A program made the translations under genes and the position numbers. 64,000 nt of DNA. It comes from Methylobacter sp. S3L5C (lineage in GTDB: Bacteria; Pseudomonadota; Gammaproteobacteria; Methylococcales; Methylomonadaceae). A model generated the notes under the pieces. The model worked only from the letters and a program-made list of their open reading frames with translations, did no database searches and was not told the DNA's origin. Shown in pieces: positions 59,847 through 64,000 of the stretch. The stretch spans positions 2,914,001-2,978,000 of the forward strand of contig NZ_CP076024.1 in assembly GCF_022788635.1 (NCBI RefSeq), written 5' to 3'. Each line of letters starts with the position of its first letter. Positions within the stretch are counted from its first letter, which is position 1.

Positions 59847-59923
<77 letters not shown>

Positions 59924-59931
59924 ATTGAAAC

Positions 59932-59965
59932 AATGACTTACGGGTATTTTACCCTAGTCATTTTT
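59932..59965. terminator. Bidirectional terminator between tRNA-Pro and int
   Basis: AATGACT (59932-59938) pairs with AGTCATT (59956-59962) and inner GGGTA with TACCC; T residues follow. It overlaps the stop codon of the integrase. It can end both tRNA-Pro and integrase transcripts. Confidence 0.75.
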
Positions 59966-60970
59966 ATCCTCTGTAGTAAATTTGTCACAACTTTTTGAAT
60001 TTTCCGCATATTCCTCCAAGTGTCGACTGGATAAATGAGCGTATCTCAGCACCATACTCAAATCAGCCCATCCTCCTAATTCTTTAAGTATATGTAATGG
60101 AGTTCCATTTTGGATATGCCATGATGCCCATGTATGTCTTAAATCATGCCACCGAAAATCTTCAATGCCAGCGCGTTTTAATGCGTTACGCCACGATTTG
60201 GTGCTTGCATCATTAACTGTTTTACCTTTAAATGTAAATACCCGTACAGGATGCTTACCAATTTGGCTACGAATAACCGTGAGCGCATCGTCATTTAAAG
60301 GAACGGCTATGGCTTTCTTGCCTTTTGCCTGGTCAGCATGAATCCACGCACAACGCCGTTGTATATCTATTTGTCGCCATTCAAGCTTGGTGACATTGGA
60401 TTCTCGTAATCCTGTCGCTAATGTAAACCGCATCATTGCTTGAAGGTGGTCTGGTAACTCCTTCAATAAGTGAGTCGCTTCATCATGAGTAAGCCAGCGG
60501 ACTCGACCTGACGGCTCTGGCAATAAACGAATACCAGGTACAGAATCAAGCCATTCCCAGTCATTTTGTGCACGGGTCAGAATAGACCTTAATATTGCAA
60601 GCACCCGATTGACAGTTGAATTACTGACACCTGTTTGCTTTTTAGCCTGTTTTATCTGGTCTATCATGGCCTTATTTATCTCATCAAGTCGGTTATTTTG
60701 CAAATGCTCATTAAGCCATCGCAAGTGTACCTTATCTGTTTCGATGCTTTTTTTGTGGCTTTGTTCAGTTAACCATCTGACGACGGCTTCTTGCCAAGTA
60801 TGGCGGGGTTTATCACCCAAATTTTTAACTCGCCACGCCTCTGCTTTTAATTGATCATGTAATTGTTGTGCCTCCTGTTTTATTTGAGTCCCAGTAGTTT
60901 GTTGTACTCTGCGTCCGTCAGGTGCGGTGAACTGAATCCACCACGTTTCTTTTCGCTTGTAGATTGACAT
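59954..60970 (-). CDS. int: Tyrosine recombinase/integrase of the tRNA-Pro element
   Basis: A 338-aa site-specific recombinase. An N-terminal DNA-binding region (about 1-45) and a core-binding SAM-like domain (about 58-142) precede the catalytic domain. Catalytic residues are R189 (ATGLRESN), H275 and R278 (WHDLRHTW), W301 and the nucleophile Y310 (RYAHLSS). It points at the tRNA-Pro 3' end, the usual orientation for a tRNA-integrated element. It overlaps the upstream excisionase-like gene by 91 nt, so the two are co-translated. It looks intact and potentially active. Confidence 0.93.
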   Translation of the reverse strand: MSIYKRKETWWIQFTAPDGRRVQQTTGTQIKQEAQQLHDQLKAEAWRVKNLGDKPRHTWQEAVVRWLTEQSHKKSIETDKVHLRWLNEHLQNNRLDEINKAMIDQIKQAKKQTGVSNSTVNRVLAILRSILTRAQNDWEWLDSVPGIRLLPEPSGRVRWLTHDEATHLLKELPDHLQAMMRFTLATGLRESNVTKLEWRQIDIQRRCAWIHADQAKGKKAIAVPLNDDALTVIRSQIGKHPVRVFTFKGKTVNDASTKSWRNALKRAGIEDFRWHDLRHTWASWHIQNGTPLHILKELGGWADLSMVLRYAHLSSRHLEEYAENSKSCDKFTTEDKND

Positions 60971-61188
60971 GGTTTTTTATCCTCTTGCGTCGATTTGTCA
61001 ATCACTTGCAGTTCTCGCCGGGGTTCAGAATAACGCCCGGACACCCAATCAGCAAGATGTTCTTTAACAAAAATCCAGCATTTCCCTGCCTTTCTTCCCG
61101 GTACCTGTCCAGCCCTGGCTTTACGGCGTAAAACTTCTGGGTTCATTTTAAGAAAGCTGGCGGCTTCATTTAAATCTAGCGTATTCAC
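60880..61188 (-). CDS. Excisionase-like helix-turn-helix protein
   Basis: A 102-aa protein with an HTH of the MerR/excisionase type near the N-terminus (DLNEAASFLKMNPEVLRRKA, then AGKCWIFVKEHLADW). The start is GTG 61188, 5 nt after GGAG; a more distant GTG at 61215 lacks a ribosome site. The C-terminal part is charged and disordered-looking. It overlaps int by 91 nt and probably controls recombination direction. Confidence 0.8.
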   Translation of the reverse strand: MNTLDLNEAASFLKMNPEVLRRKARAGQVPGRKAGKCWIFVKEHLADWVSGRYSEPRRELQVIDKSTQEDKKPCQSTSEKKRGGFSSPHLTDAEYNKLLGLK

Positions 61189-61300
61189 ATTTTCTCCGGT
61201 GCAGTATTGGGTCACACACAGTCTATGATGCTGTCACGTACGATTGGCTAATCAACAAATATCAGATATTTTGCAATCCATTTTAAAACGCCATGATTAA

Positions 61301-61789
61301 TTAAAAGTCTCTACTTGTTTCGGTGACCTTAGTTTTGCAAACACAGCAACGCTCTACATTATATTCGCGTGCATTTAATAGAACCGGTGCGCGACAATGG
61401 TGACATTTGATAATATGAGTTATACCGCGTTGCAAATCTCTTGCGACTACCCAGGCCGCAGAAAAATCAAGTTGACTGACGGGATATGATTTTTTATAAA
61501 TATCAAAAGCGTTAATAATGATCCGGATGTCGCTGTTCTGGCTTCTAGAGACGACTTTTTCAAAGCAAACTGCAAACAATGTCACCTCTTTGTACTTTTT
61601 GAGCGTCCTGGTCAGTCCTTGCGTTGAATATTTTAATGCGCCCGGATGCGCAGAGCAGCCATGAAACTCCCGATAGGTTTTCCGAAGCAGTGGTTTGGAT
61701 AAGCCGGTTTCCCGATGAACAATTGAAACTCTGGCATGACGTTTCAGTAACTCCAGTGCCAATAACTGTTTATTGATGGTTTTTAACAT
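61301..61789 (-). CDS. FlhC-family transcriptional regulator, copy 1
   Basis: This is a 162-aa FlhC homologue. The N-terminal helical part (LLALELLKRHARVSIVHRETGLS) and the HPGALKYST segment align with FlhC's GMLPFST region. Near the C-terminus the zinc motif C-x2-C ... C-x2-C is present (CHHC and CCVC). GAGG stands 6 nt before the ATG at 61789; a second in-frame ATG at 61801 overlaps the upstream stop. FlhC forms a hetero-hexamer with FlhD to activate sigma-70 promoters. Homologues on mobile elements (SetC, AcaC, SgaC) activate transfer genes. No flagellar gene is nearby. Confidence 0.82.
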   Translation of the reverse strand: MLKTINKQLLALELLKRHARVSIVHRETGLSKPLLRKTYREFHGCSAHPGALKYSTQGLTRTLKKYKEVTLFAVCFEKVVSRSQNSDIRIIINAFDIYKKSYPVSQLDFSAAWVVARDLQRGITHIIKCHHCRAPVLLNAREYNVERCCVCKTKVTETSRDF

Positions 61790-61800
61790 ACACCACCTCA

Positions 61801-62391
61801 TTAGAGTGAGCCACTGAGACCTAGCAGTACATCCACCACGTCACGGCGTTGGGTGGTCATGCTATGGATAAAGTGAGTCGTAAAGCGTGGCGAAAAGCAT
61901 AACCATCCGGATTGGGCAATATGCCGAATGTCTTCAATGGATAACTGGGTGAGAGCTAAGCGCATGTCGTCTTCCCCAATACCCATCGTCAACTCCGCCA
62001 GCAGTGAATTTTCTTTAGCTAATTCACGGGCCTTGATCAACCAGGCTACATTCAGCTCATAAAAATCTACGTCACAGGCCTTGTTTGTAAATAGTGGCCG
62101 TTGTTCAGAATAATCGTCTGTATTTTTAAAGGGCCATTGTATACAGGCTTTGATAGAAGAACTGACGTTAGTTAACTGTAAATGCTGATTTAGAAATTCG
62201 CTGCCAAATTCTGTTATCAATGGCTTTATAAAGGCCTGAAAAAATTCCTCAGCAAAGTTGTCAACGCCAGTAAAATCTATCGTCAGTGGTTGACGATTAA
62301 CGAAACATTCACGGGCTAATCGTGCCAGATTACTGCCATGACAAGGTTGGTGTGTTTGTCGATCGGTGATGCTGCTAACAACGATATACAC
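61801..62391 (-). CDS. STAS-like domain fused to FlhD-like domain
   Basis: The protein has 196 aa and two apparent domains. Residues about 1-90 resemble the STAS-like DUF4325 fold: PLTIDFTGVDNFAEEFFQAF, then LNQHLQLTNV. Residues about 109-180 resemble FlhD: FYELNVAWLIKARELAKENS, LTMGIGEDDM and SGWLCFSPRFTTHFI align with FlhD's IYDINLSYLLLAQR, FRLGINEEM and NQLVCHFRF. Start is GTG at 62391 with AGGAG 7 nt upstream. It lies between two FlhC homologues and overlaps the region of the second's start. I know no described FlhD with this N-terminal domain. The remote similarity makes both calls provisional. Confidence 0.68.
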   Translation of the reverse strand: MYIVVSSITDRQTHQPCHGSNLARLARECFVNRQPLTIDFTGVDNFAEEFFQAFIKPLITEFGSEFLNQHLQLTNVSSSIKACIQWPFKNTDDYSEQRPLFTNKACDVDFYELNVAWLIKARELAKENSLLAELTMGIGEDDMRLALTQLSIEDIRHIAQSGWLCFSPRFTTHFIHSMTTQRRDVVDVLLGLSGSL

Positions 62392-62442
62392 TTAAGTTCT
62401 CCTAGTCGGTTATAAAGATTCACTGGTTAAGCTGGTTAGGCG

Positions 62443-62988
62443 TCAGTGATCCTGATTTTTAGTGTTTTTTCGGGGCTTAACGGTCATCCATCGTCGCCGT
62501 CCTGATTTATCTGCCCAGACAGCGCAGATGGGGCATTGCTGAAAAGGTTTTGGCATATTATTTACCACCACATAACGGGCTTGGCACTGTGCGCAGTGCA
62601 TCAGGCTCATTACACCGGCAGTCAATTGTCCGAACAACTGCCAGGCACGGTTGATATCCAGTAAAATAGCATGGGGAGCATTCGCTTCCCGCTTGCCGGG
62701 ATTAGGGTTAGTTGTAACGATACGGCAATACAAGTCATATGCAGTAATGAGTATCTCAGCATTGCAGGGGACTTGGCTTTGCTGTTGCTGCTGTTGAGAA
62801 AAATCGTGGATAAGGCCAAGGAAAATTGAGGCATGACAGTTATGTACCGAGGATCGTACAGTCCAAAAGGGATCATAAGGCAACATACCTTGTCGGGGTG
62901 AGCGCTGGTGAATAGTCTTGTAAAGACGTATGGCGGTTTTTTTGCCTAGATGACAGACAGCACAGACGACCGGTGGCCGAGCACCCAA
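62443..62988 (-). CDS. FlhC-family transcriptional regulator, copy 2 (start missing or unusual)
   Basis: The closer FlhC homologue of the two: RLYKTIHQRSPRQGMLPYDPFW matches FlhC's [22 protein letters not shown]. The C-terminal zinc ligands are CAQC and CPIC. A TTG at 62988 is the only normal start codon, but the same frame stays open to 63084 and encodes an FlhC-like N-terminal helix (LPFKHYLVLADKLYSLGA) with no start codon at all. The 5' end has therefore probably been lost, most likely when the adjacent insertion sequence arrived. A glutamine run (DFSQQQQQQSQ) is atypical. It lies 51 bp upstream of the FlhD-like gene. Confidence 0.75.
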   Translation of the reverse strand: MGARPPVVCAVCHLGKKTAIRLYKTIHQRSPRQGMLPYDPFWTVRSSVHNCHASIFLGLIHDFSQQQQQQSQVPCNAEILITAYDLYCRIVTTNPNPGKREANAPHAILLDINRAWQLFGQLTAGVMSLMHCAQCQARYVVVNNMPKPFQQCPICAVWADKSGRRRWMTVKPRKNTKNQDH

Positions 62989-63230
62989 GCTATAAAGTTT
63001 ATCGGCCAGGACTAAGTAGTGTTTGAACGGTAATAAATTATTTAATACAAAACAATAAGTTGCGATAAAATAGGCTATTGAAAATCAAATAACAGCCTAT
63101 TGGCGTATAAAATGCTGAATTTAAGTAACTTGCTGATAATTATGATTATTATTTTCATCGAAAAGGGCTTGGCAAAAGCTACCTCCCGGATAAGCGCCTC
63201 AGCTTTCAAATTCTCGTTGGAAAACTCCCG
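62989..63230. other. Junction between the FlhC locus and an ISNCY-type element
   Basis: AT-rich spacer between two divergent genes. AATAGGCT (63070-63077) and AGCCTATT (63095-63102) form an 8-bp inverted repeat close to the stop that closes the FlhC frame. The left end of the insertion element should lie in this interval but cannot be placed without its right end. Confidence 0.5.
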
Positions 63231-64000
63231 ATGAGAAAGGTATTTTCTCCACAAATGAGCATCGGTCAACGCGATATTGCTGATATCAAAATAGATGTTT
63301 CCTCCCGTGATGACATTCCGATCATCTTGCTGGGCTTGCAACACATTTATACGACTCAGCCATTAAGGGATGCTGTTTTTAAAATACTGGAGGATGTGGT
63401 GCCTACTAAAATTGACGCCGAAGTGACAAAAATCGTTGCCATCGACAAAGGCCGCCCCGGTATGAATCAATGGTCGATTTTGGTGTTAGGATCGCTACGC
63501 GTAGGACTGAATACAGACTATGATCGCATTCTGGAGTTGGCCAATCAGCATAACACCCTACGTGAAATGCTCGGTCTTGGTTGCTTTGATGCCGACAAAC
63601 GCTATCGCCTGCAAACCTTGAAAGACAATCTCAAGCTGTTTACGCCAGCGATCATGGCGCGTATTAGTACTGAAGTTATTCGAGCCGGCTATCAATTACT
63701 GGATCTGGATATTCATGCGCTGATCAGAGGCCGTTGCGATTCTTTTGTGTTAAAAACCAACGTGCATTTTCCAACCGATATCAGTTTACTGCATGATGCG
63801 ATCCGGATTCTGATTCGGACGTGCGTCAAATGGAGCTTGCAACATGCCTTGCCTGAATGGCGATTGCATAAGCACAACCTGTCTAAATTTAAAAGGCGGT
63901 ATCGCACGCTGCAAAAACTCAAACATTCCACGTCAAAAAATGACGCTATCAAGGCCGCCAAAGCACTTGAGATCAAACAGGCCTACCAGGACTATATTGA
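63231..64000 (+). CDS. ISNCY-family transposase, 3' part beyond the window
   Basis: An open frame from ATG 63231 (MRKVFSPQMSIGQRDIADIKID) continues for 256 codons to the window edge without a stop. RDDIPIILLGLQHIYTTQPLRD, GRPGMNQWSILVLGSLRVGLNTDYDR and VHFPTDISLLHDA are typical of ISNCY transposases. No stop or frameshift is seen in this part. A short minus-strand frame across its start is a shadow. Confidence 0.8.
   Translation, partial: MRKVFSPQMSIGQRDIADIKIDVSSRDDIPIILLGLQHIYTTQPLRDAVFKILEDVVPTKIDAEVTKIVAIDKGRPGMNQWSILVLGSLRVGLNTDYDRILELANQHNTLREMLGLGCFDADKRYRLQTLKDNLKLFTPAIMARISTEVIRAGYQLLDLDIHALIRGRCDSFVLKTNVHFPTDISLLHDAIRILIRTCVKWSLQHALPEWRLHKHNLSKFKRRYRTLQKLKHSTSKNDAIKAAKALEIKQAYQDYI

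What the first reader, a model, noticed from the sequence alone, without database searches (positions are those of the whole stretch)
61301..63084. FlhC - (STAS-like + FlhD) - FlhC regulator locus on a tRNA-Pro mobile element
Seen directly: three minus-strand genes in a row behind an integrase and an excisionase-like gene. Two encode FlhC-like proteins with C-x2-C...C-x2-C zinc motifs. The middle one carries an FlhD-like C-terminal half and a STAS-like (DUF4325-type) N-terminal half. Known: FlhDC homologues SetCD, AcaCD and SgaCD are master activators of SXT/R391, IncC and SGI1 mobile elements. Inferred: this locus is the activation switch of an undescribed integrative element. The STAS-like domain would add a signal or partner-binding input, and two FlhC paralogues could give alternative complexes. 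The FlhD fusion architecture is new to me.
Basis: partly seen in the sequence, partly recalled or inferred. Interest (0 to 1): 0.86.

Follow-up and report, generated by a model that had tools for sequence, protein, structure and literature searches.

The report
STAS-FlhD tandem activator on methanotroph ICEs
Mobile DNA elements of methane-eating bacteria carry an extra four-gene switch, a doubled copy of the FlhDC gene activator with one subunit fused to a STAS-like domain, often next to the genes that cut the element out of the chromosome; its gene order is conserved but its function has not been tested.

Summary
The 196-aa protein is a STAS-like (DUF4325)/FlhD fusion between two FlhC-like genes, behind int and an excisionase-like gene at tRNA-Pro. 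The full unit has four genes, FlhD-FlhC-[STAS-FlhD]-FlhC: the first FlhD lies 1 kb beyond the window, and the upstream FlhC is split by an ISNCY-type insertion. The locus ends a 211-kb conjugative element (68-bp att repeats, MobH/F-type genes, empty site) that also has a SetCD-type pair beside TraG at its other end. The order recurs in 22 of 30 loci; near-full-length fusions occur in 41 of 301 genomes of the order and in none of the other 368 of a class-wide sample. In four relatives a ~34-bp palindrome marks mob, mating and recombination promoters but not the four-gene promoter, which has its own conserved element. Best reading: a second FlhDC-type activator linked to excision; a transfer role stays open, above all in plasmid-type relatives. 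Function untested. New variant of a known kind.

The parts
59847..59923 (+). tRNA-Pro (ggg), integration target
   Evidence: ARAGORN; empty site at the same tRNA in relative G013
59874..59941 (+). attL: 68-bp exact repeat, second copy (attR) at G000:C1:3184974-3185041, 211.1 kb away
59954..60970 (-). tyrosine integrase
   Evidence: Pfam Phage_integrase 4.5e-34
60880..61215 (-). excisionase/RDF-like HTH_17 protein
   Evidence: Pfam HTH_17 1.5e-6; same place in L035, L036, L045, L050
61301..61801 (-). FlhC-a, gene directly after STAS-FlhD; groups with the FlhC beside TraG
   Evidence: Pfam FlhC 2.6e-17; tree; two CxxC motifs
61801..62391 (-). STAS-FlhD fusion protein, 196 aa
   Evidence: dN/dS 0.08-0.21
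62098..62385 (-). STAS-like (DUF4325) domain, residues 3-98
   Evidence: profile match to VapS 9z7o 7.7e-9; Pfam DUF4325; no fold match at E <= 0.001
61840..62076 (-). FlhD-like domain, residues 106-184
   Evidence: profile match to FlhD 8j56 1.8e-8 and 1g8e 3.7e-7; Pfam FlhD
62443..63018 (-). FlhC-b, 3' part of a gene interrupted by an IS; its 5' stub lies beyond the IS and outside the window
   Evidence: Pfam FlhC 1.7e-21
63019..64000 (+). ISNCY-type insertion sequence (continues to about 64922); transposase ORF from 63231
   Evidence: NCBIfam ISNCY transposase 3.7e-56, below its cut-off for the part in the window; second copy 98.5% identical in the same element; target repeats

Best explanation
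The locus is a regulatory operon at the integrase end of a family of conjugative elements of Methylococcales (ICEs; a related version lies on large plasmids). It encodes two FlhDC-type pairs in tandem: FlhD-FlhC(b), then STAS-FlhD-FlhC(a). The second pair groups with the FlhDC pair beside TraG and gained an N-terminal STAS-like domain. The most likely working: an unknown input switches on the operon from its own conserved promoter. The four subunits form one or two FlhDC-like hetero-oligomeric activators, in which the STAS domain adds a dimerisation or partner surface. Transcription runs on into, or the complex activates, the excisionase-like gene and integrase that often follow, so excision is controlled separately from the transfer operons, which carry a ~34-bp operator probably read by the TraG-adjacent pair. 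Shown: gene order, domains by profile, selection, element boundaries, promoter element, operator positions. Inferred: complex formation, DNA binding, targets, signal. In the window's copy the first pair's FlhC is disrupted by an IS, so at most the STAS-FlhD/FlhC(a) pair is intact there.
For: Four-gene order in 22 of 30 loci, tightly spaced (some loci are near-copies of each other), plus one IMG/VR contig with HTH and integrase genes behind it. Small HTH genes behind the unit were tested by Pfam in 7 loci: five clear hits of five families (own HTH_17; AlpA 9.9e-11, PrtN 3.8e-15, DUF4224 1.8e-10, Exc 8.6e-11) and two weak HTH_17 hits. tRNA genes lie near 10 of 16 loci scanned, of several kinds: Pro, Leu, Arg, Lys, Thr, and Ser/Arg/Asn and His/Arg/Pro clusters. 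Trees: FlhC-a with the TraG-side FlhC (100/97), the fusion's FlhD with the TraG-side FlhD (100/99), FlhC-b and the 94-aa FlhD apart from these. dN/dS 0.05-0.24 where computable. Own promoter element, exact at 9 tandems and at no other place in 2.15 Mb. Palindromes at TraI, TraL, TraF and upstream of recombination genes in 4 relatives, none at the tandem or xis. In all 6 relative ICEs compared the TraG-adjacent pair is present. In SXT, SetCD itself drives xis and int.
Against: No target of the tandem is shown. In plasmid-type relatives (clade B) the unit lies between transfer operons, and in three such genomes (G085, G062, G105) neither PF05280 nor a profile of TraG-side FlhCs finds any FlhC but the tandem's own: a transfer role there is likely. 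Strong palindromes were found only in 4 elements that have both regulators, so which one reads them is open. No HTH gene was seen by eye directly behind L043, L064, L070 or plasmid L074, and L046 has an HTH gene but no integrase behind it. Distances from FlhC-a to the next recognised frame run from overlap (L045) to several hundred bases (L049, L052), enough for separate promoters. The full-length model is too poor to use (pLDDT 53).
Confidence: 0.48

Rival explanations
1. The tandem is a master transfer activator itself: its complex (not, or not only, the TraG-adjacent pair) binds the 34-bp palindromes upstream of the mob, mpf and recombination operons, as SetCD/AcaCD bind theirs.
For: In clade B the tandem is embedded between the traU/traN side and traD/mobH, and three clade B genomes have no other FlhC by two profiles. 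Operator type co-varies with tandem subclade: type 2 with L048/L051, type 3 with L043/L045/L046. 34-bp palindromes were not found in three elements of another family that have only the TraG-adjacent pair.
Against: Operator type fits the TraG-side subclades equally well. The elements with only the TraG-adjacent pair seem to share a weaker motif at the same promoters (by eye). No palindrome of this kind recurs in the clade B elements, which have only the tandem. Pairs beside TraG are the known kind of reader of such operators.
Confidence: 0.29
2. The tandem is an antagonist: its extra FlhD and FlhC subunits poison or titrate the TraG-side complex, keeping the element quiet.
For: Subunits of the second pair come from the same lineage as the TraG-side pair. 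Two close elements have lost the same FlhC gene to different inserts while STAS-FlhD and FlhC-a stay open, as might happen if a costly regulator is selected against.
Against: Three clade B genomes have the tandem with no TraG-side pair to antagonise. Purifying selection on all four genes and the kept two-pair order argue for assembled complexes.
Confidence: 0.11
3. The STAS domain is a CapS/VapS-type phospho-switch: a GHKL kinase phosphorylates it on DNA damage and remodels the FlhDC complex.
For: Best solved-structure hit of residues 3-98 is VapS (7.7e-9), whose kinase senses ssDNA (PMC13373217 passages). The element carries a LexA/S24-type repressor, so damage signalling is plausible.
Against: The VapS S48 column is Ser in 2 of 28 members and Glu in the window protein; the neighbouring column is Ser/Thr in 21 of 28 but Ala in the window protein. 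HATPase_c_2 matches listed in 8 genomes show none inside the G084, G093, G050, G057, G087 elements or plasmid G085:C2, one inside the window's element (C1:2994300, a 507-aa frame beside a response-regulator ORF by eye, so an ordinary sensor kinase by context) and two weak ones in G110. On one plasmid an HATPase_c_3 protein lies about 8 kb away.
Confidence: 0.07

Closest known systems
SetCD (SXT/R391 ICEs), AcaCD (IncC plasmids), SgaCD, AqaCD, AsaCD
   Same: FlhDC-type activators on conjugative or mobilisable elements. The TraG-adjacent pair of these elements has the context described for that family (TraG, lysozyme-like gene, MobI), and the tandem's second pair groups with it. No SetC/SetD/AcaC/AcaD sequence was itself compared here: the label is by context.
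   Different: Known ones are described as single C/D pairs beside TraG. Here there is an additional four-gene tandem with a STAS-FlhD fusion at the integrase end, with its own promoter element; the transfer operator was not found at xis, whereas SetCD directly activates xis and int.
BisDC of ICEclc
   Same: Weakly FlhDC-like activator of an ICE; BisC carries DUF2857. The fusion gave a weak DUF2857 hit, 0.028.
   Different: BisD has a ParB domain and no detected FlhD domain. No STAS domain or tandem pairs in the passages read.
CapS / VapS STAS proteins (CapK-CapS, VapKSC)
   Same: N-terminal STAS domain coupled to a C-terminal effector part; VapS is the best solved-structure sequence hit of residues 3-98; CapS is a STAS-wHTH transcription factor.
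   Different: C-terminal part is FlhD instead of wHTH or antitoxin tail; the conserved phospho-serine is missing.
Flagellar FlhDC
   Same: Same two protein families; FlhC-b groups with the one flagellar-type FlhC row tested.
   Different: On mobile elements; an FlhC match of flagellar strength is present in only 2 of 25 genomes searched.

Membership tests
FlhDC-type activator (FlhC PF05280 and FlhD PF05247) | FlhC domain over the Pfam cut-off with C-terminal zinc cysteines | tested here: met
   63.6 and 77.2 bits vs cut-off 27; at least two CxxC in the C-terminal 75 residues of 24 of 24 FlhC-b and 25 of 26 FlhC-a open frames over 150 aa (the window's genes are counted twice, as window and L004)
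FlhDC-type activator (FlhC PF05280 and FlhD PF05247) | FlhD domain | tested here: met
   window fusion below the Pfam cut-off (23.4 vs 27 bits) but 22 of 28 members match at E <= 0.01 and the family profile hits three FlhD sequences of solved structures at 1.8e-8 to 4.5e-7
FlhDC-type activator (FlhC PF05280 and FlhD PF05247) | forms a heteromeric DNA-binding complex that activates promoters | not testable with these tools
   no binding or expression data
STAS-like / DUF4325 | match to the DUF4325 profile or to a STAS protein of known structure, by sequence | tested here: met
   31.2 bits vs cut-off 23; 26 of 28 members; VapS 7.7e-9
STAS-like / DUF4325 | STAS fold | tested here: inconclusive
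   model of residues 1-99 with pLDDT 75.6 from 4 sequences; no PDB match at E <= 0.001, only weak STAS hits such as 5eux, TM 0.42
CapS/VapS-type phospho-switch | conserved Ser/Thr at the VapS S48 position | tested here: not met
   Ser in 2 of 28; Glu in the window protein
SetCD/AcaCD family | C/D pair beside TraG, lysozyme-like gene and MobI | tested here: not met
   not met by the tandem (at the int end); met by the other pair of the same element (slt label by eye)
SetCD/AcaCD family | sequence relation to SetC/SetD themselves | not tested
   no SetC/SetD sequence was fetched
SXT/R391 ICE | integration in prfC | tested here: not met
   integrates at tRNA-Pro; prfC
SXT/R391 ICE | MobH/F-type transfer genes of SXT kind, MobI, lambda-type exonuclease | tested here: met
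   over cut-off: SXT_TraD 689 vs 366, MobH 412 vs 200, TraC-F 661 vs 567, TraF-like 280 vs 232, exonuclease 128.5 vs 68, MobI 109 vs 26.6, TraG_N 359 vs 36; below NCBIfam equivalog cut-offs: TraU, TraB, TraG
Integrative and conjugative element | att repeats, integrase, relaxase and T4SS, absent from the site in a relative | tested here: met
   excision and transfer themselves not testable

The most novel reading that the evidence does not exclude
Methylococcales conjugative elements split control between two FlhDC-type switches: the TraG-side pair at the 34-bp operators for mating genes, and a four-subunit STAS-FlhDC tandem that alone commits the element to excision and travels as a regulator-plus-excisionase cassette onto unrelated integrases. 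The STAS-FlhD subunit would be a new kind of FlhD that lets a signal decide which of two FlhDC complexes assembles.
Probability: 0.28. Interest if true: 0.82.

Novelty: new variant of a known kind. Interest (0 to 1): 0.66.

Why it matters
FlhDC-type activators decide when large conjugative elements move. A widespread element family that carries two such systems, one doubled and fused to a STAS-like domain beside the excision genes, makes a concrete question testable: how an ICE separates leaving the chromosome from building the mating machine. The operator positions and the tandem's promoter element give direct handles for reporter and ChIP tests in methanotrophs.

Tried and rejected
Sequence homologues in phages: none. 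Viral contigs: one relative in five scans. Plasmids: 5 records, 2 covering at least 80% of the query. Full-length model of the fusion from 4 sequences: pLDDT 53, PDB comparison without a match at E <= 0.001, not used. Model of residues 1-99: pLDDT 75.6, also no PDB match at E <= 0.001.

A first operator guess (CGGCA-N4-CTGCAA) was half of the palindrome found later. An ad hoc pattern for the window's own element was not cleaner than chance, so operators in own, G084 and G057 rest on inverted repeats at the same promoter positions only. Recurrent palindromes in six clade B elements and three elements with only the TraG-side pair: none like the operator; that scan also missed the weaker sites of own, G084 and G057. 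The tandem promoter pattern at up to 2 mismatches gives 21 hits against 23 for the reversed pattern, so only the exact hits count; no exact-match control was run. PF05280 missed the FlhC beside TraG in G110, found later by tblastn: Pfam absence is weak evidence, hence the profile search. The FlhD tree lacks a flagellar FlhD row (not found), and both trees flag long branches. Phospho-switch: not supported. A script overwrote its own query file, so the gene labels and all were empty; one search repeated the step correctly.

Papers: PMC4542580 passages and section 24; PMC4344509 passages; PMC7423338 passages; PMC13373217 abstract, outline and passages; PMC8527097 passages (an ICE region and an FlhC gene in Methylococcus KN2, no fusion in the passages); the rest as search listings only. 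That I know of no printed description of the fusion rests on searches of this open-access library only.
Full report
What is there. The three reported minus-strand genes exist. Pfam calls the outer two FlhC and gives the middle one DUF4325 plus FlhD. The fusion is firm at family level: 26 of 28 members hit DUF4325 and 22 of 28 hit FlhD at E <= 0.01. The family profile hits the STAS protein VapS with residues 3-98 and FlhD proteins with residues 106-182. A fold comparison did not add support: the model of residues 1-99 (pLDDT 75.6) has no PDB match at E <= 0.001.

What was missed. Just outside the window lies a 94-aa FlhD (Pfam 3.5e-8) on the same strand. Between it and the FlhC body sits an ISNCY-type element with a six-base target repeat and a 98.5% identical second copy in the same ICE. 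The unit is thus FlhD-FlhC(b)-[STAS-FlhD]-FlhC(a), with FlhC(b) interrupted here. In Methylobacter psychrophilus Z-0021 (G034) the same gene is also cut, by different sequence at another point where the contig ends (read by eye as an IS5-like transposase start). Copies without such a break exist, for example in L036.

The element. A 68-bp exact repeat of the tRNA-Pro 3' end occurs twice in the genome, 211.1 kb apart. Inside are SXT-type TraD, MobH relaxase, F-type TraC/TraU/TraB/TraF/TraG, a lambda-type exonuclease, MobI and a TrfA-like initiator, and a LexA/S24-type repressor near the right end. In relative G013 the same tRNA-Pro, with MerR/IHF-like sequence on one side (read by eye), is followed directly by sequence 79% identical over 96 bases to our DNA right of attR: an empty site. 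The right end carries a second FlhD/FlhC pair (FlhC 26.1 bits, just below the Pfam cut-off; FlhD 3.2e-10) beside TraG and an slt-like gene, the context described for SetCD/AcaCD orthologues. The genome also has one strong, flagellar-type FlhC (2.2e-80).

Spread. In the first search 34 of 200 relatives matched at E <= 0.001, some by the FlhD part only. In a class-wide sample, 4 of 369 genomes matched and only the window's own genome had a full-length match; at least 3 of the others belong to the same order. Of 30 fusion-bearing loci fetched, 22 show all four genes (including the window's interrupted copy, and L044, whose frames are broken); several are near-copies of each other. Of the other 8, L035, L039 and L050 are cut by a contig end; L041, L047, L052, L069 and L070 hold only part, and L070 has fusion and FlhC(a) with no FlhD or FlhC(b) seen upstream. 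One IMG/VR contig has all four plus HTH and integrase genes.

Neighbourhood. Behind the unit, same strand, there is often a small excisionase-like gene, but its family changes: HTH_17, AlpA, PrtN, DUF4224, Exc, with weak HTH_17 in two more. None was seen by eye behind L043, L064, L070 or on the plasmid. Int-like frames related to the window's integrase occur in 11 of the 30 loci, L040 on the opposite strand; other integrases by eye in L038, L042 and L062. tRNA genes of several kinds lie near 10 of 16 loci scanned. On the 349-kb plasmid of Methylobacter sp. YRD-M1 (typed non-mobilizable in PLSDB, although it has MobH and tra genes) the unit instead sits between TerC/TrbC/TraU/TraN and TraD/MobH genes. 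A divergent gene of unknown family (p356) neighbours it in 8 of the 30 loci.

Lineage and selection. Trees place FlhC(a) with the FlhC beside TraG, and the fusion's FlhD with the FlhD beside TraG, while FlhC(b) joins the single flagellar-type row and the 94-aa FlhD stands apart (few columns for FlhD, long branches flagged). dN/dS is 0.05-0.24 for all four genes; two pairs gave no ratio because dS was zero or saturated. So two distinct FlhDC pairs are kept together.

Control regions. Six relative ICEs were compared with the window's; all six have the TraG-adjacent pair, in G110 found only at the second attempt. In G093, G087, G050 and G110 a ~34-bp palindrome lies at about -70 of TraI, -88 of TraL and -50 or -120 of TraF. 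Half-site agreement is at least 13 of 17 in 10 of these 12 promoters, against 4 of 630 shuffled upstream regions. Matrices from 12 such sites find 5 sites above 14 bits in each element (100-170 kb) and 0 in base-shuffled sequence; 8 of the 20 were not in training, four of them about 0.7-0.8 kb upstream of the recombination gene o417. A second, decayed element in G093 has two further type-3 sites, also not in training, while its co-resident ICE uses type 2; over all loci the matrices gave two weak stray hits and cross-hits between types. In the window's element and two close ones only weaker inverted repeats lie at the same positions, for example -52 of TraF, and a pattern scan did not confirm them. 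No palindrome site lies at the tandem or xis promoters of the four elements. Instead nine clade A tandems share an exact promoter element, ACYTTKCG-NN-CGGGACA, about 17 bases before TAGCATA/TACCATA; no other exact hit exists in the 2.15 Mb scanned.

How it most likely works. I read it as a second FlhDC-type activator tied to excision, with transfer operators left to the TraG-adjacent pair. In SXT, SetCD binds at xis and drives int and xis itself; here the xis-like gene instead often follows the tandem directly. Target, complex and signal are inference. The STAS part is probably a dimer or partner surface, because the phospho-serine column of VapS is not kept and no consistent GHKL kinase lies in the elements. 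Clade B keeps a transfer role open: in G085, G062 and G105 the tandem's are the only FlhCs found by PF05280 and by a profile of TraG-side FlhCs, which does find such FlhCs elsewhere in G031, G061 and G087. My data do not settle which regulator reads the palindromes.

Verdict. A real, conserved architecture, so far seen only in Methylococcales in these samples, that I did not find described in the searches listed. It is a new variant of the known FlhDC-type control of conjugative elements, not a new category. The window's own copy is partly broken.

Noticed in passing
L007:18799-19074 (G000:C1:3188798-3189073): Right of attR an ORF translation shows the repeating PHTRGDEP/FPTPVGMNR pattern that I recall as typical of a CRISPR array read as protein.
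   Followed up: no
L045, L160-L163 (G093:C1:1826226-1906722): A second tRNA-Pro element of about 80 kb in a genome that also has a fuller ICE. It keeps the tandem, TraL-TraN and recombination genes; no TraI, TraF or TraG hit was found in it. Its operator type differs from that of the co-resident ICE.
   Followed up: partly
L004:6154-7170 (window-equivalent 65653-66669): Divergent neighbour p356 of 8 of 30 tandems: no Pfam or NCBIfam match, two hydrophobic stretches and CxxC by eye; candidate partner or sensor.
   Followed up: partly
TraF-MobI intergenic regions, e.g. L007 about 1597-1620: A short inverted repeat, AATCCCTA...TAGGGATT or CCCTGAT...ATCAGGG, recurs upstream of TraF/MobI in several of these ICEs; possible transfer-origin feature near mobI.
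   Followed up: no
L080 (IMGVR_UViG_3300001813_000057, first 12.6 kb): A contig filed as viral carries the tandem plus HTH and integrase genes beside large ORFs that look phage-tail-like by eye.
   Followed up: no
L060:2077-2108: Near-perfect palindrome (32-base stretch) just before a TetR-like ORF (by eye) in the element's cargo.
   Followed up: no
G087:C2:3251-3754 and 524166-524669, G065:C57:7104-7607: A further FlhC kind (about 2e-22) on contigs that also carry TraG, separate from the tandem families studied here.
   Followed up: no
L061:15380-16282: The element encodes a TrfA-like protein (2.5e-15) next to the relaxase gene, so it may replicate after excision.
   Followed up: partly
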